A DNA stretch of 64,000 bases from Cyanobacteria bacterium FACHB-471. Lineage in GTDB: Bacteria > Cyanobacteriota > Cyanobacteriia > Elainellales > Elainellaceae. The notes beneath the pieces were generated by a model. That model was not told the DNA's origin. It saw only the letters and a program-made list of their open reading frames with translations, and did no database searches. Below are positions 97-22,395 of this stretch, piece after piece. How positions within the stretch are numbered: position 1 is the first letter of the stretch; every line of letters starts with the position of its first letter. A program made the position numbers and the translations under genes. The stretch covers positions 1 to 64,000 of the forward strand of contig JACJOC010000087.1 of assembly GCA_014695345.1 (NCBI GenBank), in the 5' to 3' direction.

Positions 97-1659
97 TCAC
101 GATCCTAAGTATTCCTGGAAACTGAAGTGGGCAAACTCAAACTCTTCTGGCTCTCGCTGCACGATCAGTTCGCTGATCTGCTCAATCTGCTGCAAAAACT
201 CTGCGGCGGCGACGGTTTCCTCCTGGCTGGTTAGATATTGGGTTAACCGTTCTAGCAGAGTTTCCTGGTCTACCCGTTCTTCCTTGCGCTGCATCATTTC
301 TAAAGCCAGCATTTGCAGAATGGTTTGTGCTTCGCAGTCTGCTAGCAAAGTTTCGAGTTTGCGGGCACCGGGGCGATCGCGCAATTGCAGAACACACATT
401 TCCTGATACAGCTCTACTCGCCGTTTGGGTAATTCTGCGCTAGGGTAGCGGCGATGAAACAGGGCAATCATGTTTAATAACAGAGGATTTTCGGTCAGAT
501 CGTTCAACTCCTCCCGTGCTTCAATCTGGCTGAGCAAGTCCTCTGCTGCCTCCGTTGCTGCTTTACGTACTGCTGGAGTGTCGGTTTTACCGTGATGATA
601 GTATTCCTGGCACCAATACCACTTTTGGATAAAGTCTCGGCGTTGCTCAGGTTTAAATTTTCGTACCCACAGCAGCGTGTTGTAGTCGAGCCTGTCACCC
701 GGATCTTGCTCGGTGTAAGCCTTGGGTCGGGATGTCAGGATGAAGACTGAATTTTTGTATGTCCGCATTTGAGCATTGAGCCAGCGAGCCACCAGCGGAC
801 GTTGGGCTTTGGGGACTTCATCAAACCCATCCAACATCACCACCATCTTGCCCTGCCTTAGCATCGTGCGGGCCCAATTCGTAAGCATTCGCAGCCCATC
901 TGCCGCAGGCAAACTGGGAATGTGGTGTTGCTCAATCAGGGTGGCTAGATCGTCAGGCTTATCTTGGGTCAGCAAGTCTCGATATTTGCGCAGCAGCAGC
1001 AGTACTGGAATGAAGCGTGGCACTGATCGGGGCTGTTGGTTCTTGCTCAAGGTGTAGGCAATGTGGCGCAATAAAGTTGTTTTGCCATAACCGCCCCAGG
1101 CAAGAATGGCGATTTGGCTATAGATGGGGTCGCGCTTCGTCCGAGCTAGTAACGCCCAGATATCTACCTTGCTAAAATCTGCCGGATCGTAGAATCCCGA
1201 AGCTCCAAATCCAGGGAGTAGAGTACTGCGATCTAGCTCTAGCGGCACAAAGACCTGTTCCAGCATGGGCGTGAAAATGCCGCTAATTTTCCCGATGCCT
1301 TCGGTGCTCCAGGTTTCACAATCTGCTGCCTGACACTCCAGGTAGCGGTCTTCAACTGAGGTAATTTTAGCGATCGCCACTTCACCCACACGGTCAATGC
1401 TTCGATTTGCGGCTTCTCCTAATTTCTCAAGTCGTTGCTCATTGCCTTTGTGAATTGGCTGAAGCAACTTGGCTCCCTAAGAGAGCATCACTCCAATGAC
1501 GGCAGAGGCGATCGCCTTAGGAATATCGCTCTCGACAAACAAAAACCAGATTGCTCCAAGACTGCCCCCTGTCACCCCACCCGGTTTAATGACTTTGATG
1601 ACAATATCTGCAATTTGCTCACCTAGAGAAATTTTTTGAGGGTCGGGTGCTTGTGTCAT
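97..1659 (-). pseudogene. NACHT-domain NTPase split by an in-frame amber codon
   Basis: The gene reads from ATG at 1659 for 60 codons, meets TAG at 1477-1479, and stays open in the same frame from the next codon to TGA at 97-99. The first piece has a hydrophobic helix rich in Gly, Ile and Val; the second (456 residues from TTG at 1467) has a Walker A loop GGYGKTT near residue 125, a Walker B MLDGFDEV near 211, and the NACHT C-terminal motif FAHFSFQEYL right before its stop. Cyanobacterial NACHT proteins usually have such an N-terminal hydrophobic segment joined to the NTPase, so I infer one ancestral gene of about 520 codons. There is no C-terminal sensor domain (no LRR, TPR, HEAT or pentapeptide repeats). 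Bacterial NACHT proteins often act in phage defence. Read-through, restart at the TTG, or a sequencing error could each keep the product alive. Confidence 0.75.
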
Positions 1660-2171
1660 GGCGCAATACTACCCAGTGAGCAACAATTTTGTTCTCATTG
1701 TGGCTTACTTAACTTGAATCTGGAGTTTAATTCTCACTGTTTTGCCTATCCTGTATGACTGCTCTAGCAACGAGCATTGCCTTTGTTTCTATCTTGAATA
1801 CCGCTGATTCGGTTTTGATATGCGCCAACGGGGTCAAAAATAGAAATGACGCATACAAAAATAGAGACGATGTAGTCAAACATAGAAATGACGTATACAA
1901 AAATAGAGACGATGGGGTGCAGAACCGAAACGACGCATATCAAAATAGAAACGACGCAGCCCCAAAACGCATTCTTAGAATCAATCCCTGAATTGTCCTG
2001 ACTCTGACATCTACTGCAGGAAATTTCTCGGTGTCGCTACGGAATAGAAAACACTTCAACATCAAACGTGGATGAGTTGGAGCATCTGCCTGATTCATCC
2101 GCATAGTTCAGGTGAGAATTTCCTATAACAGGATGTGCTTTCTTGGAGCTTCTTACAGAAGTCCCTAGCCC
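1660..2171. other. Spacer between the NACHT gene and the barrel gene
   Basis: The part next to 1659 should hold the NACHT promoter. The middle carries the 21-bp repeats described separately. The remainder, up to the end of the barrel gene at 2172, shows no gene I trust. Confidence 0.5.
1836..1961 (+). repeat. Six tandem 21-bp repeats, open in one frame
   Basis: Six imperfect 21-bp units lie head to tail. Read on the plus strand in frame with an ATG at 1755, each unit encodes a heptapeptide of the form K/Q-N/H-R-N/D-D-x-Y/V, giving a possible 78-residue protein ending at 1991. The unit length is a multiple of three, so the frame is kept whatever the copy number. I see no convincing ribosome binding site for the ATG at 1755, and I do not recognise the protein. 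It may be a non-coding minisatellite or a small repeat protein. Confidence 0.6.
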
Positions 2172-3542
2172 CTAAAACAATGGCACATTCACATCAATTG
2201 AAGCACCAAAAATTGCACTGTTAAAATCAACATCTGAGTCAGATGAGTCACCAAAGCTCACTCCGCCAAAGAGAATGATACGGCTGTTGCGAGAAAGGTC
2301 GTAACTCAACTGCGCCACAACCTGGTTGTAAAGATCTTCTCGATCTTGTTGGGTAAAGTTAGTTAGGGTGAGTTGGTAATCTAACCCGACCTGAAGGTCA
2401 GGCTGAAGGTTGTAATTGAGTCCAACGCCTACAGTGTTGGTGATACGACTGCGATCGCTTGGGTTTGCGAACCCTAACCGCAGTTGATAAAAACTATCTA
2501 GCCTTAGATCGGAGGCTAACGGGTCGCGTCGGGCTAGGGTTAGCCGCAGAGAGTGATCATTGAAAAAGCGATCGCCATCATCAAAAAGCTGCTGATTGCT
2601 CCAACCAATCTCACCATAAGTACGAGCCGACAAAAACTGGCGAAGGCTAGCTCTAAACTCCAACTCTCGATAGTCCAGTCCTGACAATTCGTTGTAGTGG
2701 ACTAGCCCACCTTCCACTGAGGCAAGCAATAGTGTGTCTGGTCCAAGACGGGGAGCTGCTAAAAGCGTAGCACTGAGGCTGATTAGCTCATCCTCAATCG
2801 GGTCAAGTCGGTCTAACAGAATGTTGTCGCTCTTGAAGTAGCTCAACCGACCCATGAAGAAAACAGTTTCAGCAGGAGAATCTGGCTGAGTCTCGATCTG
2901 CTCCAACTCTTGTTCTCGTAATCTCAGAATTCCCAGTTCTTCATCACCTTCTGACTCGTCAACTTGCTCATCAGTTAGGGCTGGGTCTGGGTCAGATGGT
3001 GGTTCAGCCGGTAGTGTCTGCTGTAGTTCTTGTTCATCAGTTGGGACTAAGTCTGGTTCAGCTGATGGTTCAGTCGGTACTGTCTGCTGCAATTCCTGTT
3101 CCCGCAGCCGCAAGACTCCTAATTCTGGGTCGCTAGCTCCAGTGGTGTTGACTTCAGAATTTTCCTCTGAGACAAAAGCTTCTGTTTCAGGTCGTCCAAC
3201 CCTGGATTGAGTAATCATTTCGGGAGGTGCTACTTGACCCCTAAATGGCATCTGAAGTGACTCAACCTTGGGATTGGCGATCGCCTTGTCTACAGCAGTT
3301 TGTCTGGAAGGTGACTGCCCCTCAACGTGAGGTGTAATGAGTGAGTCAGGTGGAGCAGTTTTGGGAACAGCATAAGCAGCACTGTTGTAGACAAAAGCAA
3401 TCCAGAAAATTGGTAACTTCAGGAGATTAAAGTCTAGAGGTGCGGATTGCTTGTGCTGGTAGGTAGGAGCTTTCCTGTTTGCCGAGATAGATGTTTGAGG
3501 AGCATTAAACTCTCTCCAAATTCGGCTGAGTCTTAAAAACAC
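2172..3542 (-). CDS. Predicted outer-membrane beta-barrel protein with acidic Pro-rich linker
   Basis: This 456-residue protein is not a family I can name. It has a long basic N-region followed by a hydrophobic stretch at about residues 38-58 ending AAYA, which could be a signal peptide. Residues 60-225 are a Pro/Glu/Asp-rich linker holding two copies of a motif ELGV/ILRLREQEL (about 140 and 202). Residues 226-456 alternate polar and hydrophobic positions, have repeated aromatic girdle-like residues and end in Phe (VPLF), as outer-membrane barrels do. It is the last gene of a three-gene minus-strand run behind the FecR-domain gene (153 bp gap) and the CHASE2 kinase, so a role as the outer-membrane partner of that pair is inferred. 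Confidence 0.7.
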   Translation of the reverse strand: MFLRLSRIWREFNAPQTSISANRKAPTYQHKQSAPLDFNLLKLPIFWIAFVYNSAAYAVPKTAPPDSLITPHVEGQSPSRQTAVDKAIANPKVESLQMPFRGQVAPPEMITQSRVGRPETEAFVSEENSEVNTTGASDPELGVLRLREQELQQTVPTEPSAEPDLVPTDEQELQQTLPAEPPSDPDPALTDEQVDESEGDEELGILRLREQELEQIETQPDSPAETVFFMGRLSYFKSDNILLDRLDPIEDELISLSATLLAAPRLGPDTLLLASVEGGLVHYNELSGLDYRELEFRASLRQFLSARTYGEIGWSNQQLFDDGDRFFNDHSLRLTLARRDPLASDLRLDSFYQLRLGFANPSDRSRITNTVGVGLNYNLQPDLQVGLDYQLTLTNFTQQDREDLYNQVVAQLSYDLSRNSRIILFGGVSFGDSSDSDVDFNSAIFGASIDVNVPLF

Positions 3543-3605
3543 CGGTTAAATTCTTCCATTTCAAAAATCATATCTGGGGGATGGTTAATCCGATCAGGCG
3601 ACTGT

Positions 3606-3649
3606 TTCCTGATACAAAAGCTGGCAATGTCCAACTTTTGTATCAGGAA
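3606..3649. repeat. 15-bp perfect inverted repeat between the FecR and barrel genes
   Basis: Arms 3606-3620 and 3635-3649 are perfectly complementary around a 14-nt loop. There is no T-run on the minus-strand downstream side, so it is not a classical intrinsic terminator. It could be a processing or attenuation hairpin that sets the ratio of the FecR and barrel messages. Confidence 0.6.
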
Positions 3650-3695
3650 TAATTCTGTCTCCAACGTTACTCAACTCAAAGCTAATATCCGCTCA

Positions 3696-5414
3696 TCAGT
3701 CGCGGTTGCCATTGCCGTTGCCGTTGCCATTACGGTTGCCAGGACGGTCTTCATCTCGACCATCTCTGGTGTTGGGGATGTTGATAACAGGACGGTCGTT
3801 GCCGTTGCCGTTACCGTTGCCATTACCATTTCCAGGACGGTCATTGCTGTTGCCGTTGCCGTTGCCATTTCCAGGACGGTCGTTGCCGTTGCCGTTACCG
3901 TTGCCATTACCATTTCCAGGACGGTCGTTGCCATTGCCGTTGCCGTTGCCATTACCATTTCCAGGACGGTCGTTGCCGTTGCCGTTGCCGTTACCGTTGG
4001 CATTGCCGTTGCCGTTGCCGTTGCCATTACCATTTCCAGGACGGTCGTTGCCATTGCCGTTGCCATTGCCGTTGCCGTTGCCATTACCGTTGCCATTGCC
4101 AGGACGCTCGTCATCATCATTGCCAGGACGCTCATCATCGTCATCATCCCGACCATCTCTATCATTGGGAATATTTATAACAGGGCGTCCATTGCCACCA
4201 TTACCGCCATTGCCGTTGCCACCGTTGCCGTTGCCGCCATTACCGCTGTTGCCACCGTTGCCACCGTTGCCACCGTTGCCGCCATTACCGCTGTTGCCAC
4301 CGTTGCCACCGTTGCCACCGTTGCCGCCATTACCGCCATTGCCGTTGCCAGGAGGTGTTTGCCCTTGTCCAGGTGGGTTGTTACCAGGATTAGGACGATC
4401 GTCGCTTCGACCCTGTTGGGGAACTACATCTCGAACGGTTGGGTCTTGTACTGGAAGCCTGTCAGTAACTGGAGTGGTGATAATCCCTCCAGCATTCCGA
4501 TCAGGAGTAACGTTTGGCTCCTGGTCAATAGAGTCTCTGCCTGGAGGTGTATTATTTGTTCCTGAATTAGTAGGTGGGTTAGTAGGATCAGATGAGGAAT
4601 TAGCAGGTGTATCAGGAGTTGTTGCGGTGGGCTGTTCACCCTGCTGTGGCGATCGCACAAACTCAGGGTTCTCGATCACCTCTGCGTCTGGGATAGGAGG
4701 CTGAGCGCTAACCGCGGCCCGCATTTCCTCTTGAACGGGGGCGATCGCTTGATCAGGAGTTTCTAAAACTTCAGTTGGAGTGAGCCCACGAACTAGCTCA
4801 CTCGATTCATAAAAGGTAGTGAGGTCAAAGTCATAAACCCCTTCTAGGCGATCGCCCACTGCCACTGCGAGTTGACCACCCCGAAGCTCTTGCGTTTGAG
4901 AGCCATCCTGGTTAGATACTTCAATCCCGCTATCAGTTAGGGCACCTACAATTGTGGTGTCTGTCTCAGGAATGTAGCGAACAAATAGAGCAGAACCTTG
5001 AATTCCAGCTGCTGCGTTGGGTGTGCGAATGTTGGTTCTGCCTTGTCCCGGTGGAATCAGCAGCAAAACCGTTCCGTTAGAAAGCTCAAAATTGCGTGTT
5101 CCAGATGAAAACCGGAACACGACCTGTTGTCCCAACCTTCCTAAAGAACCATCATTAAACCGGAGCTCTGCCGAAGATGAGCGGGCAGTTGAAAGCCCGT
5201 CTCCAGGAGTGAGTACGTCAGAAATGCGAGCATTACGGGAAGACTGGCTCTGAGGCAGCAGTTGAACCCGATTTCGAACTGCCTCAATGACTGCCCGCCT
5301 TAGAACCGTCTGAGCGTGGACTTCCGTCGGTAAAAACATCAAGCTGCATACGAGTGCAGCAATTACGGGAGTAATACGACTGAACATTGGCAGTCTCCAT
5401 TCGCTGAAGTACAA
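3696..5414 (-). CDS. Secreted FecR-domain protein with very long Gly/Asn repeat tail
   Basis: The 572-residue protein starts with a signal peptide (cleavage probably after EVHA, residue 34; the Met at residue 10 is an alternative start). Residues 60-150 match the FecR fold seen in many cyanobacterial periplasmic proteins: D-x-L-T-P-G-D, then a FNDGSLGRL strand and a TPNAAAGIQGS turn. Residues 210-350 are a Pro/Thr/Asn-rich linker. From 353 on there are GGN triplets, then two copies of RPVINIPN-x-RDGRD (about 410 and 544) flanking a stretch of GN dipeptides punctuated by two ERPGN and five DRPGN blocks. FecR domains elsewhere relay signals to sigma-factor systems, but no sigma factor is nearby; the neighbours are a CHASE2 kinase (upstream) and a predicted barrel (downstream). 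The tail could be a flexible spacer in the periplasm or cell wall. Confidence 0.8.
   Translation of the reverse strand: MYFSEWRLPMFSRITPVIAALVCSLMFLPTEVHAQTVLRRAVIEAVRNRVQLLPQSQSSRNARISDVLTPGDGLSTARSSSAELRFNDGSLGRLGQQVVFRFSSGTRNFELSNGTVLLLIPPGQGRTNIRTPNAAAGIQGSALFVRYIPETDTTIVGALTDSGIEVSNQDGSQTQELRGGQLAVAVGDRLEGVYDFDLTTFYESSELVRGLTPTEVLETPDQAIAPVQEEMRAAVSAQPPIPDAEVIENPEFVRSPQQGEQPTATTPDTPANSSSDPTNPPTNSGTNNTPPGRDSIDQEPNVTPDRNAGGIITTPVTDRLPVQDPTVRDVVPQQGRSDDRPNPGNNPPGQGQTPPGNGNGGNGGNGGNGGNGGNSGNGGNGGNGGNGGNSGNGGNGNGGNGNGGNGGNGRPVINIPNDRDGRDDDDDERPGNDDDERPGNGNGNGNGNGNGNGNGNDRPGNGNGNGNGNGNANGNGNGNGNDRPGNGNGNGNGNGNDRPGNGNGNGNGNGNDRPGNGNGNGNSNDRPGNGNGNGNGNGNDRPVINIPNTRDGRDEDRPGNRNGNGNGNGNRD
3700..4358 (-). 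repeat. Low-complexity Gly/Asn-coding repeat tract
   Basis: This is the DNA for the tail of the FecR-domain protein: hexamer-like units coding GN and nonamer-like units coding GGN. The tract is so regular that the other five frames are mostly open as well. Slippage or recombination should make its length vary between strains. Confidence 0.9.
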
Positions 5415-5757
5415 AGCACTTCACGCTTTGCAAAACACAAACTCTTCAAGTTGGCTCTGAAAACCTCTTTCCACAGCACAAAGCGTGTCTCCGGACAGAA
5501 GCACCCACTTTTCTTTCCTTTTTTCAGTAGAAGCACAGAATTTTTCTGTAAATTTTTATTTTTTAGAACTAATTAAAGATGTAACTCAGAGAATTTACGG
5601 CGTAAGCACCCGTGTCGTTTTCTTAGAATAACAAAACCTTGTACCGCATTATGGATGTTTCTCAGTAATCATGCGGAAGTTTTACGTTAGAGGCGATCGC
5701 TCCCCTTCTTCTTCACCAAAAGAACATGAAGTGAATGTATCTTAAGCACTGCTATAT
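5415..5757. other. Intergenic region upstream of the FecR gene
   Basis: This 343-bp AT-rich gap separates the kinase stop from the FecR start. It contains T-rich stretches (about 5510-5570) and one HIP1 site near 5693. It probably holds a separate promoter for the FecR gene; I see no clear terminator. Confidence 0.4.
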
Positions 5758-8241
5758 CTAGTTCTCAGGCAGCGGTGCAGTGTCTTCTGCTTTTACTTTA
5801 GTCAAGTCTTCTAAAGAACCTTGCTTAGAATCTTCAGGTGACACAGTAATGTCTGCTTGCTCAAAGATAGCGGTATCTGCTTGCTCAAAGACGGCAGTGT
5901 CTTCCTGCGTCAACATAGCAGTGTCTGCCTGTTCAAAGATGGCAGTGGAACCCTCTTCTAGTTGAGCAGTCGCCACAACTGAGTTTAAGACAATGGGTAG
6001 TTGTTTCAATGCTTCATGCACTTGGCGGACTGACGTATAGCGTTGAGTAAAGTCGTAGCGCACCATCTTGGTTAATACATCAGCACACTCAGAACTAACC
6101 TGAGGTGCCTGCTTGCGCCAAATCACTTCGCCTGTCATGCCATCATGATTGAGCATGTGAGGAGGTTGCCCCGTTAAAGCTTCGATCGCAATCATGCCTA
6201 AAGCATAAATGTCACTGTTAAAGTGAGGTCGCCCAGCAGACTGTTCATTAGGCATATAGCCTGGAGTACCCACCGCCACCGTAAACTTAGTGTTGCGCTC
6301 AACGTCAGCTAGCTGAGTTGTAATTCTTTTAGCAATACCAAAGTCAATGAGAACGAGTCGATTGTCTGACTTGCGCCGGATAATGTTTGAGGGTTTCAAG
6401 TCACGGTGGATCACGCCCTGACTGTGAACAAACTCCAGCACACGCAGGAGATCTTGTAGGATTACAACTACCTTTGACTCAGGTAAGGGAACACGAGAGT
6501 TGAACTCATCAGAGAGTGGCTGTCCTGCTACAAATTCTTGAACCAGATAAAACTCCTGATCTTCCTCAAATGAATTCAGGAACGAGGGAATTTGATCGTG
6601 TTGCCCCAACCGTTCTAGGGTTTCGGCTTCGGTCGCAAACAGCCTTCGGGCTAGCTTTAGAGTATCCAGATTATCGCTGGCAATTCTCAACTGTTTCACC
6701 ACACAGGGTGCACTGCCCGATCGCTTCATATCTTCAGCAATATAAGTTTCGCTAAAGCCACCAGAACCGAGAACTTTAACAATTTTGTAGCGATCGTGTA
6801 ATACTTTTCCCGAAAGCGCTTGTTCTCGCTCTTGGATCAGATCTTGCAAGTCATCTTGCTGGCTAATAATTTCCTGGACAATGGGGGAAGTGGCGTATTG
6901 TTTTAGCGTGTCTCGCAGGTGTTGTTTTCGCTGTTGTTCTTTGACGGAGCCTGCCATGAGTTGAGAAAAGCCGCTCAGGGCGATCGCCCCTACCGGAATA
7001 GCCGTTGGTAAAATCAGCTGACCATAAGTAAATGCAATATAGCTAATGCCTCCCCAAGCGATCGCCATTCCCATTGCCCAGACCCAGCGCATTGCAGGCT
7101 GACGGGGGCGGCTCAGCAGCAATCCAGCCCCAGCTAAGCCAATCAGCAGAACCAGTCCTCGCAGTGGGGCTTGGGGTAATGCTTCTGCTAGCGATCGCCC
7201 TTGCAATAGAGAGGCGATCGCATTAGCGTGAATCTCAACTCCAGCCATTGGTTCAGAGTAGAGCCAGCTTTTAGAAAAAGGAGCAGCATGAAAATCTTGA
7301 TGTACCGCTGCGGTTGACCCAACTAGAACGATTTTGTCTTTGAAATACTCACCCGATTGCAGGGTAGTCTCCCAAGTTGTTGGGTCTAACACATACCAAA
7401 AAGGAATGTGCTCAAACGTTTGGCTCGGTCCATAGAAAAAGATGTGATTCCCTCTAGGTGTAGAATGCTCAACTTGAGCTGCCCGAAGGGTTGCATCCAC
7501 AAATGTGGGAGTGGTCGCAGCCAATTCTCGATAAGCCTCTGCCTCATTCGCTGGAGAATTTTGGATCAACTCAACAAGAAACTGATTGCCAAATCGATGG
7601 ATTTTGCCATCAGGTTCCATAAAGAAGTTAATCGAGCCAGCCTGATTAGGGTGATGTTGAAACAACGCCAAGGGCGAGGTCAATTGTGTCGTAAAGCCCT
7701 GTGGTGTTTCTACATCGTTATATTGAGCGGCTAGCACTACCCGTTCTGCGTGTTGCTGAATCGATTGAGCAAACTGCTGGTCATCCACTTCACCGTAGCT
7801 ACTTGGTGCTGAGAAGATGATATCGAGTGAAACTGACCGGGCACCTGCTGCCATCAGCTTATCAATCACTTGGGCATAGGCTGAGCGCTGCCAGGGCCAG
7901 CTTTGAATTGGCTCTAGATAGGAATATTTATCCGGATCGGTTTGATAGAATTCCTGCTGTGCCAAAGACGTTTCGTCGATCGCCAAAATCACAACTTCTG
8001 GAGGAGCTGCGATCGCCCCTCTCACTTCAAAGAAAAGAGCTTGTACCTGCCGCTCTAAGAGATCAACAATTCCTAAGTTCAGGGCAGTCGTCGCTGCCGC
8101 CATCAGTACCCATGCTCCGGTTAAGCCATGTCCCCAGGTACTCAACCGAAATTTCTGGAAGCTTTTTGTTGTCTTTCCTGGTTGAGTGCGATCGCGGGGT
8201 GCGGTTGCAGCGTCCGAAACAGGTGCTTTTTTTCTGCCCAT
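5758..8241 (-). CDS. CHASE2-domain serine/threonine protein kinase
   Basis: The 827-residue membrane kinase has an N-terminal transmembrane helix (about 42-58), a CHASE2 sensor domain (about 65-345) expected outside the cytoplasm, three further membrane helices (about 360-430), a short coiled linker, and a Hanks-type kinase domain (about 484-745). Visible kinase motifs are the glycine loop LGSGGFSETY, Lys516, HRDLKPSN (His612-Asp614), DFG (633-635) and a GTPGYMPNEQ activation segment. After the kinase come five octapeptide units of the type D-T-A-x-F-E-Q-A. Family knowledge: CHASE2 senses an unknown extracytoplasmic signal and Hanks kinases phosphorylate Ser/Thr. It heads a co-directional run with the FecR and barrel genes, so periplasmic sensing coupled to envelope proteins is the likely setting. 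Confidence 0.92.
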   Translation of the reverse strand: MGRKKAPVSDAATAPRDRTQPGKTTKSFQKFRLSTWGHGLTGAWVLMAAATTALNLGIVDLLERQVQALFFEVRGAIAAPPEVVILAIDETSLAQQEFYQTDPDKYSYLEPIQSWPWQRSAYAQVIDKLMAAGARSVSLDIIFSAPSSYGEVDDQQFAQSIQQHAERVVLAAQYNDVETPQGFTTQLTSPLALFQHHPNQAGSINFFMEPDGKIHRFGNQFLVELIQNSPANEAEAYRELAATTPTFVDATLRAAQVEHSTPRGNHIFFYGPSQTFEHIPFWYVLDPTTWETTLQSGEYFKDKIVLVGSTAAVHQDFHAAPFSKSWLYSEPMAGVEIHANAIASLLQGRSLAEALPQAPLRGLVLLIGLAGAGLLLSRPRQPAMRWVWAMGMAIAWGGISYIAFTYGQLILPTAIPVGAIALSGFSQLMAGSVKEQQRKQHLRDTLKQYATSPIVQEIISQQDDLQDLIQEREQALSGKVLHDRYKIVKVLGSGGFSETYIAEDMKRSGSAPCVVKQLRIASDNLDTLKLARRLFATEAETLERLGQHDQIPSFLNSFEEDQEFYLVQEFVAGQPLSDEFNSRVPLPESKVVVILQDLLRVLEFVHSQGVIHRDLKPSNIIRRKSDNRLVLIDFGIAKRITTQLADVERNTKFTVAVGTPGYMPNEQSAGRPHFNSDIYALGMIAIEALTGQPPHMLNHDGMTGEVIWRKQAPQVSSECADVLTKMVRYDFTQRYTSVRQVHEALKQLPIVLNSVVATAQLEEGSTAIFEQADTAMLTQEDTAVFEQADTAIFEQADITVSPEDSKQGSLEDLTKVKAEDTAPLPEN
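5830..5949 (-). repeat. Octapeptide repeats in the tail of the CHASE2 kinase
   Basis: Residues 765-804 comprise five 8-residue units: STAIFEQA, DTAMLTQE, DTAVFEQA, DTAIFEQA and the diverged DITVSPED. Each has Ser or Asp followed by Thr at fixed register beside acidic residues. This looks like a row of phospho-threonine docking sites, but that is inference. Confidence 0.85.
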
Positions 8242-8621: not shown

Positions 8622-9242
8622 TTAATTCAAGAACACTGAACCTGTTTCTTGAATCACCAGGGCAGTTTCATCTTCACCCAAATCTGTGGTTTCATCTAAA
8701 GTGACTTCCAACACGCCAGGCTCGGCGATCGCCACAGGAGTCACGGTCAACAGCCCTCTATCTTCTCTGTAAAACGTGATTGTGATCGGAGTCGCTAACT
8801 GTTGCAATGTCACCTCCGAGTCGCCTGCAAGCGATCGCAACTCCGTGTCTTCAATCACCTGATAGCGGATTACAGCAGCCGTTGAGTTGATCAGCCTGAC
8901 GCTAACCGCTCCATTTACAGGAGTGACTGCTGTCACAGGTTCTTCAATTTGCTCTGGCGTAGGAGGAAAACTCGTGGCGTCACTGGGACTTGGAGCCGCT
9001 TGGTCAGGAGTTACGGGAGTCTCAGGGGCTACTGGCACTTGGCTGCTGGCAGCATTGGGAGGGCATTCTTGAGGTGGAGCAACGGTATTGTTGAAGGGCT
9101 CTTCGTAAAATACACCAGGGCAGCTATTGACTTGGGCAATCAACTCAGATGCTAGAGCCGGAGAAACTGCCCCGATTCCCGCTAACATGGCACTTGCAGC
9201 ACCAAGCAACCGGAAATTAACACGTTGGCGATCGCACTGCAT
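8622..9242 (-). CDS. Exported Pro-rich protein of unknown function
   Basis: The 206-residue product has a signal peptide (residues 1 to about 31, ending ALA-S), two cysteines soon after it, a Pro/Thr/Ala-rich linker (about 60-110), and a C-terminal part (about 110-206) with beta-strand character. GGAGGAG lies just upstream of the ATG at 9242, which supports this start. It is divergent from the AraC regulator 230 bp away. I do not recognise a family. Confidence 0.75.
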   Translation of the reverse strand: MQCDRQRVNFRLLGAASAMLAGIGAVSPALASELIAQVNSCPGVFYEEPFNNTVAPPQECPPNAASSQVPVAPETPVTPDQAAPSPSDATSFPPTPEQIEEPVTAVTPVNGAVSVRLINSTAAVIRYQVIEDTELRSLAGDSEVTLQQLATPITITFYREDRGLLTVTPVAIAEPGVLEVTLDETTDLGEDETALVIQETGSVFLN

Positions 9243-20341: not shown

Positions 20342-21220
20342 ATGGATATTGATCACCGAGATCAGTTAGTGAGTGGGGTCGTTTCTGCGGAATGGCTGTA
20401 TGAGCATTTGGATGATCCTCAGGTGGCGATCGCCGACTGCCGATTCTCGCTAGCTGATCCAGAGTTAGGACAACGCCAGTACCAGGAAAGCCACATTCCG
20501 GGTGCATACTATTTTGACCTGAATCGGGATCTGTCTGGTCCCGTTGGTCAGCATGGTGGGCGGCATCCCCTACCCGATGTGGGCACTCTGACAGAAAAGC
20601 TGAGAGCGATTGGAGTCCATTCAAGCAATGGCAGTTCGGAAGGTCCTGATTCAGAAAATTCAGGCGAACCAACCCTGGTGGTTGCTTACGATGATTCCCG
20701 CTTGGCCTTTTCTGCCCGTTTTTGGTGGCTATTACGCTACTTAGGACATGAGTATGTCGTAATTTTAGAGGGTGGCTTTGGCAATTGGCAGGCAAATTAT
20801 CCGGTTAGCAATGCCATCCCAGAACCTAAAGTGGGAAGTTTTGTGCCCCATGTACAGGGCGATCGCATCCTCAACATTGAAGCTGTAAAATCGCGCAAAG
20901 ATCGTCCCGGAGTTGTTTTGGTTGACTCTCGGGAGGGCGATCGCTATCGAGGAGAACGCGAACCGATTGACCCAATCGCAGGACATATTCCAGGAGCCGT
21001 CAACTATCCCTGGCAAATGGTGACAACGAGTGAGGGGCAAGTTCGTTCTCTGGCTGAGCAACAGCAGCACTGGGCAGAGCTAGCGCACGTAGAAGAGATC
21101 ATTGTCTACTGCGGGTCGGGGGTCACCGCTTGTGTCAATTTGTTTTCCTTAGAGATGGCGGGTATTAGAGACGCAAAGCTTTATCCGGGTAGCTGGAGCG
21201 ATTGGTGCTCTTATCTTTAA
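20342..21220 (+). CDS. Sulfurtransferase with two rhodanese domains
   Basis: The 292-residue protein has an inactive N-terminal rhodanese domain (about 10-155; Asp118 where a catalytic Cys would be) and an active C-terminal one with Cys257 in YCGSGVTA. CGSGVT loops are typical of 3-mercaptopyruvate or thiosulfate sulfurtransferases. HIPGA occurs in both halves. Residues 94-110 form a Ser/Gly/Glu-rich loop insertion. It is divergent from the mnmD-like gene with 68 bp between starts. Confidence 0.92.
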   Translation: MDIDHRDQLVSGVVSAEWLYEHLDDPQVAIADCRFSLADPELGQRQYQESHIPGAYYFDLNRDLSGPVGQHGGRHPLPDVGTLTEKLRAIGVHSSNGSSEGPDSENSGEPTLVVAYDDSRLAFSARFWWLLRYLGHEYVVILEGGFGNWQANYPVSNAIPEPKVGSFVPHVQGDRILNIEAVKSRKDRPGVVLVDSREGDRYRGEREPIDPIAGHIPGAVNYPWQMVTTSEGQVRSLAEQQQHWAELAHVEEIIVYCGSGVTACVNLFSLEMAGIRDAKLYPGSWSDWCSYL

Positions 21221-21876
21221 GGAAATTCTCCCGATGATCTGTAAGAAGCGTTTGCATTTTGCTCAGAAAAGTCTTTGATTGCCCCCTTTTGGGAACTGAA
21301 AGCTAAATTTTCACATCTAAAAATAATCTAGTTTCATCATCAGCTGACTCCAATCCCAAAAAATTCCTGACTTTGAAGGAAGCAGGATAAAATACCTATA
21401 ATAAAGGTGCGCTATAGCTACTTTTCTAGTAGCAGAATTTCTAGACCAATCTACTAACCTATCTCTTACAGATACTACAGATGGATATGGAAAATATCAG
21501 CAAACTTGTGTTCGTATGGGCGATCGCAAACGGCAGGAGCAATTTTTGTACATGACATAAATCGGCTCTGCTGTCCGAATTTAGGCAGACTTATTTTTAA
21601 ATCAAGACTCAATAGATTGATCGATAGCTGCAGTTAGCATCAATGGCTACAGTTAGCTCAAATAGGCTGCGAGCGCAAGGCAAGATCAGCTTTTAGTCAG
21701 ATGCATCAAAAGGCTCAATAGCCTTGAGTATCGATGGGCTAGAATACTTTGGTCATAGCCTGGTATTTAACTCATAGAGCCAAAAGTATTAGATTTAGCA
21801 GGTTTCTAAAAGCGAACTGCTAGGACTGAACATTCTAGCCGAACTCTCCGCTATAAAATTTTAGGTCTAAGTTTCT
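21221..21876. other. Long intergenic region upstream of the labA-like gene
   Basis: 656 bp without a convincing ORF. There is a small hairpin near 21415 (GCTACT/AGTAGC) and a pair of imperfect direct repeats of about 20 bp at 21632-21673, each starting CAGTTAGC and ending GGCT. The region probably holds the labA-like promoter and a long 5' leader. Confidence 0.4.
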
Positions 21877-22395
21877 ATGTCTATTTCTATGAACCGTCTT
21901 TCGATCTTTGTGGACGGGAACAATATGTTCTACGCTCAACAAAAAAATGGTTGGTTTTTTGATCCTAGGAGGGTGTTATCGCATTTTACGAACGATCCTG
22001 ATGTAATGCTAGTTAATGCCTTCTGGTATACCGGGCTAAAAGATCCGCAGGATCAACGGGGTTTTCGGGATGCTTTAATTAGCCTGGGATATACTGTCCG
22101 TTACAAAATTCTCAAAGAGTATTACGACGATAATTCCGGCCGCTATTCGCAAAAAGCAAATTTAGATATTGAAATTGTTGTAGACATGTTTAATACCGTC
22201 GATCAATATGATCGCGTCATTTTGTTTAGCGGCGATGGCGATTTTGAGCGAGCGATCGAGTTACTGCGTTCCAAGAATACACATATCACTGTAGTATCCA
22301 CAGAAGGAATGATTGCTAGAGAACTCCGCAATGCTACGGATCGCTATATTGATTTAAATGATATTCGCAAGCATATTGAAAAGGTCGATAGCTGA
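21877..22395 (+). CDS. LabA-like NYN-domain protein
   Basis: The 172-residue NYN (PIN-like) domain protein has the acidic residues expected for a metal-dependent nuclease fold: FVDGNNMFY at the start, NLDIEIVVDMFN near the middle, and LFSGDGDFERAIELL. A second Met at residue 5 is an alternative start. In Synechococcus elongatus, LabA acts in circadian output and represses gene expression through RpaA; membership of the broader family here is clear, the clock role is inferred. Confidence 0.9.
   Translation: MSISMNRLSIFVDGNNMFYAQQKNGWFFDPRRVLSHFTNDPDVMLVNAFWYTGLKDPQDQRGFRDALISLGYTVRYKILKEYYDDNSGRYSQKANLDIEIVVDMFNTVDQYDRVILFSGDGDFERAIELLRSKNTHITVVSTEGMIARELRNATDRYIDLNDIRKHIEKVDS

What the first reader, a model, noticed from the sequence alone, without database searches (positions are those of the whole stretch)
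2172..8241. CHASE2 kinase - FecR secreted repeat protein - outer-membrane barrel cassette
Three consecutive same-strand genes span inner membrane, periplasm and outer membrane: a kinase sensing outside, a FecR-domain protein with a huge Gly/Asn tail, and a predicted barrel with an acidic linker. FecR normally pairs with an anti-sigma pathway and TonB barrels; here the cytoplasmic part seems replaced by a Hanks kinase. Inference: an envelope signalling route where FecR connects the barrel and CHASE2 domain.
Basis: partly seen in the sequence, partly recalled or inferred. Interest (0 to 1): 0.7.

Follow-up and report, generated by a model that had tools for sequence, protein, structure and literature searches.

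The report
Three-gene envelope-spanning kinase signalling set
Three neighbouring cyanobacterial genes encode an outer-membrane barrel, a periplasmic FecR-type protein and an inner-membrane kinase with a periplasmic sensor domain; they are inherited together across many genera and probably carry a signal from outside the cell to a protein kinase inside.

Summary
On the minus strand, 8241..2172 encodes a CHASE2 domain fused to an intact Hanks kinase (K), a secreted FecR-domain protein with a disordered tail (F), and a 12-stranded outer-membrane barrel (B). F folds like the PupR cell-surface signalling domain (Z 16.4) and B like solved 12-stranded barrels (Z about 20). The trio is a real unit. 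All nine genomes of the order with this F have K beside it, and B follows wherever the contig continues. Across 386 cyanobacterial genomes, F and K are each present in 36 and together in 35; B is next to F in 34 of 36. The trio survives an inversion of F, and K can move away but is still retained. FecR-CHASE2 pairing is a known theme whose cytoplasmic output varies (histidine kinase, cyclase, here Hanks kinase). The closest precedent is Sinorhizobium NsrA (FecR + TPR + barrel in one protein), encoded next to the CHASE2 cyclase CyaK and required for its signalling. What was swapped was a cyclase-type CHASE2 output, not an anti-sigma factor. The Gly/Asn composition of the tail is not conserved. 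Physical contacts, ligand and substrate are untested.

The parts
5758..8241 (-). K: CHASE2 - transmembrane - Hanks Ser/Thr kinase, 827 aa
   Evidence: Pfam CHASE2 and Pkinase; catalytic motifs conserved in 12 orthologues
7132..8103 (-). CHASE2 periplasmic sensor domain of K (residues 47-370), preceded by a transmembrane segment at residues 44-62 and followed by one at 358-376
6019..6789 (-). Kinase domain of K (residues 485-741)
   Evidence: kinase tree
5850..5947 (-). Repeated acidic-Thr-hydrophobic motif (ADTAIF-like, 24-nt unit x 4) in the C-terminal tail of K; candidate autophosphorylation or docking site
   Evidence: motif enrichment over shuffled tails
3696..5414 (-). F: secreted FecR-domain protein, 572 aa (probable start at 5387)
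   Evidence: Pfam FecR; AF2 pLDDT 87 for the N-terminal 230 residues
4971..5195 (-). FecR domain match (residues 74-148)
   Evidence: fold matches PupR 6ovk, Z 16.4
3699..4724 (-). Low-complexity Gly/Asn-rich C-terminal tail of F (342 aa), variable in composition between orthologues
3606..3649 (-). Hairpin between F and B (19-bp stem); possible attenuator or terminator
   Evidence: z -8.8
2172..3542 (-). B: outer-membrane beta-barrel protein, 456 aa
3106..3131 (-). First copy of the DPELGxLRLRE motif in the N-terminal acidic linker of B
   Evidence: all 12 pattern matches in 36 genomes are in or consistent with this barrel gene
2919..2945 (-). Second copy of the motif (DEELGILRL), in a predicted helix just before the first strand
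2181..2864 (-). 12-stranded barrel (residues 227-454); the protein ends in Phe
20342..21220 (+). Rhodanese gene: flank of the trio in other lineages (beside B); in this window it lies next to the NYN gene without the trio between
21877..22395 (+). NYN-domain gene: flank of the trio in other lineages (beside K)

Best explanation
The three genes encode one signalling route across the cyanobacterial envelope. The barrel (B) sits in the outer membrane and responds to something at the cell surface. Its N-terminal periplasmic linker, with the DPELGxLRLRE motif, contacts the periplasmic FecR protein (F). F relays the state of the barrel to the periplasmic CHASE2 domain of the inner-membrane protein K, and CHASE2 controls the cytoplasmic Ser/Thr kinase, which phosphorylates itself (probably on its acidic-Thr C-terminal tail) and unknown targets. 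Shown here: the folds and domains, the compartments as predicted from sequence, the conserved linkage and the co-occurrence. Inferred: the contacts, the direction of the signal, ligand sensing, the role of the motif, and kinase activity.
For: Domains and folds. Conserved trio: collinear K-F-B in L044-L049, L066, L068, L070, L074 with different flanks; K-F-B with F inverted in L073, L075, L078, L079, L168, L169, L171, L177, L187, L198. Co-occurrence in 386 genomes: F in 36, K in 36, both in 35, Fisher p 2e-47; K is kept even where it is unlinked, and 20 such loci were confirmed as CHASE2+kinase; B next to F in 34 of 36. The genome with a fragmentary F and no B (G419) also lacks K. The CHASE2 domain of K belongs with FecR-paired CHASE2 domains (100/100) and is sister to FecR-paired cyclase CHASE2 (100/99), while its kinase domain nests among ordinary Hanks kinases of the genome. 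Precedent: the S. meliloti protein encoded directly upstream of the CHASE2 cyclase has FecR, TPR repeats and a C-terminal region of the reported barrel length in one chain, and NsrA is reported as the outer-membrane receptor needed for CyaK signalling (PMC7529298, PMC13001267).
Against: No direct contact between any two of the proteins was tested. K is unlinked from F-B in most lineages outside this order, and one genome (G312) has K without a strong F. The co-occurrence test is not corrected for shared ancestry. In the window the genes are spaced (343 and 153 nt) with a hairpin between F and B, so joint transcription is uncertain. B lacks a clear plug or signalling domain, and its N-terminal 200 residues are predicted to be disordered.
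Confidence: 0.66

Rival explanations
1. Reverse direction: K senses a periplasmic state by itself, and F and B are its outputs or clients (for example an envelope channel whose assembly or opening is adjusted through FecR). The three still belong to one pathway, but the barrel is not the sensor.
For: F-B is the tightest pair (34 of 36), and K is often unlinked. Another FecR group in the same clade pairs with SLH-OprB porins without CHASE2 (L052, L053, L204).
Against: In S. meliloti the FecR-barrel protein acts upstream of the CHASE2 cyclase (PMC7529298). CHASE2 is a periplasmic sensory domain whose cytoplasmic outputs vary.
Confidence: 0.16
2. The barrel is a secretion pore that brings the low-complexity tail of F to the cell surface (a split autotransporter); the kinase only regulates it.
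For: The nearest solved folds include 12-stranded autotransporter translocators and the FapF secretion pore. The tail of F is long and fast-changing in composition.
Against: Similarity to other small outer-membrane barrels (COG4313 channel, OmpG, CymA) is also strong. In classical autotransporters passenger and barrel are one chain. The FecR domain, not the tail, is the conserved part of F.
Confidence: 0.07
3. Only F and B work together; K shares the neighbourhood by history and acts independently.
For: K sits beside an NYN gene and F-B beside a rhodanese gene in many genomes, so part of the proximity may be inherited synteny.
Against: K and F are present together in 35 genomes and apart in 2 of 386, even though they are often unlinked. 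The CHASE2 of K groups with FecR-partnered CHASE2 domains. In this window's order the trio lies away from both flanks, still together.
Confidence: 0.07
4. A classical Fec-type anti-sigma / TonB-receptor surface signalling system.
For: F carries the FecR fold, and its best structural match is PupR (Z 16.4).
Against: No anti-sigma domain, no FecR_C or STN domain, no TonB-dependent barrel with plug. The signal peptide makes F fully secreted.
Confidence: 0.02

Closest known systems
NsrA-CyaK (with CyaD1/D2) cAMP signalling of Sinorhizobium meliloti
   Same: FecR domain, C-terminal outer-membrane barrel and an inner-membrane CHASE2 receptor encoded side by side. The barrel protein is required for CHASE2-cyclase signalling (PMC7529298, PMC13001267).
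   Different: There FecR, TPR repeats and barrel are one 1219-aa protein and the output is a nucleotide cyclase. Here FecR and barrel are separate proteins, there is no TPR, and the output is a Hanks kinase.
BiofilmReg operon of Burkholderia (response regulator, LysM-FecR protein, CHASE2 histidine kinase, DUF4136)
   Same: Periplasmic FecR-domain protein next to a CHASE2 receptor kinase (PMC5192318).
   Different: Histidine kinase output with a response regulator; LysM on the FecR protein; no barrel reported.
Campylobacterota CHASE2 adenylate cyclase cluster (with phosphodiesterase, FecR-domain protein, TPR protein)
   Same: CHASE2 receptor clustered with a FecR-domain protein (PMC9239204).
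   Different: Cyclase output; no separate 12-stranded barrel described.
Cyanobacterial CHASE2 Ser/Thr kinases (cbSTKII, CHASE2 group)
   Same: CHASE2 plus Hanks kinase in one protein (PMC2176072).
   Different: That survey mentions no FecR or porin partner. The other CHASE2 kinase of this genome has the reverse domain order (kinase first) and lies in another CHASE2 clade.
Fec/Pup cell-surface signalling (FecA-FecR-FecI, PupB-PupR)
   Same: FecR fold in the periplasm next to an outer-membrane barrel.
   Different: No anti-sigma domain, sigma factor, TonB-dependent receptor or STN domain.

Membership tests
CHASE2 receptor | CHASE2 domain bounded by transmembrane segments, cytoplasmic output domain | tested here: met
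   Pfam E 7e-48; hydrophobic segments at residues 44-62 and 358-376
Hanks-type Ser/Thr kinase | Complete catalytic motifs | tested here: met
   Pkinase residues 485-741; catalytic Lys, HRD and DFG invariant in 12 orthologues. Activity itself not tested
FecR domain family | PF04773 match and fold | tested here: met
   29.7 bits against cut-off 24; PupR Z 16.4, 136 residues, 2.2 A
Outer-membrane beta-barrel | Barrel of long beta-strands, terminal aromatic residue, exported | tested here: met
   12 strands, mostly pLDDT 80-94 over the barrel; Z about 20 to solved barrels; C-terminal Phe in the alignment. Export is inferred from the N-terminus of homologues only
FecR anti-sigma regulator | N-terminal cytoplasmic anti-sigma domain and a transmembrane helix | tested here: not met
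   N-terminus is a signal peptide; only PF04773 found
TonB-dependent transducer | 22-stranded barrel with plug and STN domain | tested here: not met
   12 strands; no plug or STN match
NsrA-CyaK-like CHASE2/FecR/barrel signalling | FecR and barrel encoded with a CHASE2 receptor of the FecR-partnered clade | tested here: met
NsrA-CyaK-like CHASE2/FecR/barrel signalling | FecR and barrel in one polypeptide with TPR, cyclase output | tested here: not met
   separate genes, kinase output
NsrA-CyaK-like CHASE2/FecR/barrel signalling | Barrel required for receptor output | not testable with these tools
   needs gene deletions

The most novel reading that the evidence does not exclude
A dedicated three-protein relay, kept together across cyanobacteria, in which an outer-membrane barrel controls a eukaryotic-type Ser/Thr kinase through a periplasmic FecR adaptor: a trans-envelope protein-phosphorylation receptor that arose when the output of a FecR-CHASE2-cyclase receptor was exchanged for a Hanks kinase.
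Probability: 0.55. Interest if true: 0.75.

Novelty: new variant of a known kind. Interest (0 to 1): 0.62.

Why it matters
How CHASE2 receptors sense anything, and what FecR proteins outside sigma-factor systems do, are both open. The evidence here points to one answer for both: FecR is the periplasmic partner of a particular CHASE2 clade, whose cytoplasmic output (histidine kinase, cyclase, Hanks kinase) is interchangeable, and a barrel in the outer membrane can be the third element. The cassette gives a clean three-gene test case in filamentous cyanobacteria, including named strains, and a candidate input for one of the many orphan cyanobacterial Ser/Thr kinases.

Tried and rejected
Anti-sigma / TonB-receptor reading: rejected on domain content. 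Gly/Asn tail as a functional signature: rejected, because its composition ranges from 3 to 60% Gly+Asn in orthologues, some being Ser/Thr- or Pro-rich. DPELGxLRLRE as a general envelope motif: in 36 genomes the matches to its DNA pattern lay in this barrel gene, or (G026) on a contig start that fits its missing barrel, so it is specific to B, but its partner is unknown. The small secreted protein gene upstream (8622-9242) and the NACHT gene downstream (97-1467) as members: seen only in the closest relatives, so left out. Promoter and terminator scans were no better than shuffles. The original NsrA paper (PMC5952392) is not held; its claims are taken from two later papers, and its gene was matched by position (upstream of the only CHASE2 gene on pSymB), length and domains. 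Complexes of the three proteins could not be modelled with the structure tool (single chains only). One script step aborted harmlessly when its output pipe was cut.
Full report
What is there. On the minus strand of the window, three genes follow each other: K (8241..5758, CHASE2 plus Hanks kinase), F (5414..3696, FecR) and B (3542..2172, barrel). The kinase motifs are intact and conserved in twelve orthologues. F has a signal peptide, no further transmembrane segment and a well-predicted FecR domain (pLDDT 87) that matches the cell-surface signalling domain of PupR (Z 16.4, 2.2 A over 136 residues). The barrel of B (residues 227-454, 12 strands) matches solved outer-membrane barrels (Foldseek E down to 3e-10; Z about 20 to 12-stranded ones), after about 200 disordered residues that carry the motif DPELGxLRLRE once or more.

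Is it a unit? In the order of the window all nine genomes with this type of FecR have K beside it. Wherever the contig continues, B follows in the same order, with different flanking genes; in one genome (G026) the contig ends after F and a match to the barrel's motif lies near the start of another contig. A search of named genomes with the barrel found 16 loci, all cyanobacterial (among them Leptolyngbya, Microcoleus, Coleofasciculus, Vasconcelosia, Phormidesmis, Myxacorys), in most of which F is next to B, and K next to F in many. In a sample of 386 cyanobacterial genomes, strong F occurs in 36, K in 36 and both in 35; Fisher p is 2e-47, not corrected for ancestry. B is F's immediate neighbour in 34 of the 36. 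Outside the window's order F is usually inverted (B< F> and, where present, K<), and K may lie elsewhere, but it is then still in the genome; twenty such loci were checked and all encode CHASE2 plus kinase. The one genome with a fragmentary F and no B (G419) also lacks K.

A trace of movement. In other lineages K lies beside an NYN-domain gene and B beside a rhodanese gene; L169 and L177 show NYN-K-F-B-rhodanese in full. In this window the rhodanese gene (20342-21220) and the NYN gene (21877-22395) stand next to each other without the trio, which lies 12 kb away, still together. In L057 the same place between rhodanese and NYN holds a CHASE2 cyclase and a FecR gene. So the three genes were inserted or excised as a set; which direction is not decided here.

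Where the parts come from. In 36 genomes of the order, 26 of 36 FecR genes lie next to a CHASE2 gene: 9 CHASE2-Hanks kinase, 14 CHASE2-histidine kinase (two confirmed by Pfam, the others assigned by position, length and tree), 3 CHASE2-cyclase; about 0.5 would be expected by chance. A tree of CHASE2 domains separates the FecR-partnered group (with two further CHASE2 proteins of this genome) from the other CHASE2 domains of this genome (100/100) and puts the kinase cassette next to FecR-partnered cyclases (100/99). The kinase domains nest among ordinary Hanks kinases of the same genome, and the genome's other CHASE2 kinase has the reverse domain order and belongs to the other group. This fits an exchange of output domain behind a FecR-coupled CHASE2 sensor.

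How it probably works. The best guide is S. meliloti: the gene directly upstream of the CHASE2 cyclase on pSymB encodes FecR (residues 85-179, E 2e-15), TPR repeats and a C-terminal region of the length reported for the NsrA barrel. NsrA is reported as the outer-membrane receptor required for CyaK signalling (PMC7529298; PMC13001267). Two further reports link CHASE2 to FecR in Burkholderiales and Campylobacterota (PMC5192318; PMC9239204). By analogy B senses, F relays, CHASE2 switches and the kinase acts. The conserved B motif, not found in other genes of 36 genomes, is the natural candidate for contact with F. The C-terminal tail of K carries a Thr-x-x-hydrophobic-Pro motif in 25 of 38 orthologues against a mean of 4 in shuffled tails, and a related acidic-Thr unit is repeated in the window; it is a candidate autophosphorylation or docking site. 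These last steps are inference.

What is not supported. The Gly/Asn character of the F tail is not conserved. The system is not a Fec-type anti-sigma system. A single transcript is not shown: the gaps are 343 and 153 nt, and a strong hairpin (z -8.8) lies between F and B.

Verdict. A genuine, widespread cyanobacterial signalling cassette, a new variant of the CHASE2/FecR/barrel kind. No paper in the searched library describes this combination with a Hanks kinase, but that library is incomplete.

Noticed in passing
window 20342-22395: Rhodanese and NYN-domain genes adjacent to each other; in other lineages the K-F-B trio, or a CHASE2-cyclase plus FecR pair, lies between them.
   Followed up: partly
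L051, L052, L053, L204: Another FecR group sits directly upstream of a different kind of outer-membrane protein; L052, L053 and L204 are SLH-OprB porins by Pfam, with no CHASE2 gene nearby.
   Followed up: partly
L167 2273-9347: A genome in which a CHASE2-cyclase and a short FecR gene lie next to the B-F pair, with the K kinase elsewhere in the genome (L228): a mixed arrangement.
   Followed up: partly
own genome: 18 CHASE2 proteins with at least five output types (Hanks kinase, histidine kinase, cyclase, GGDEF, CHAT). Two (L097, L098) fall in the FecR-partnered clade without an adjacent FecR, while two FecR genes on contig C15 have no adjacent CHASE2.
   Followed up: no
window 1835-1958: Imperfect 21-nt tandem repeat array between the barrel gene and the NACHT gene; a translated repeat of similar kind (NRNDAYQNRNDALK) appears at the same place in L064.
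   Followed up: no
window 97-1467: NACHT-domain gene downstream of the cassette, also present there in L064 and L065 as a longer protein.
   Followed up: no
L201 (G419): Locus with a fragmentary FecR gene and no barrel; this genome also lacks the kinase.
   Followed up: partly
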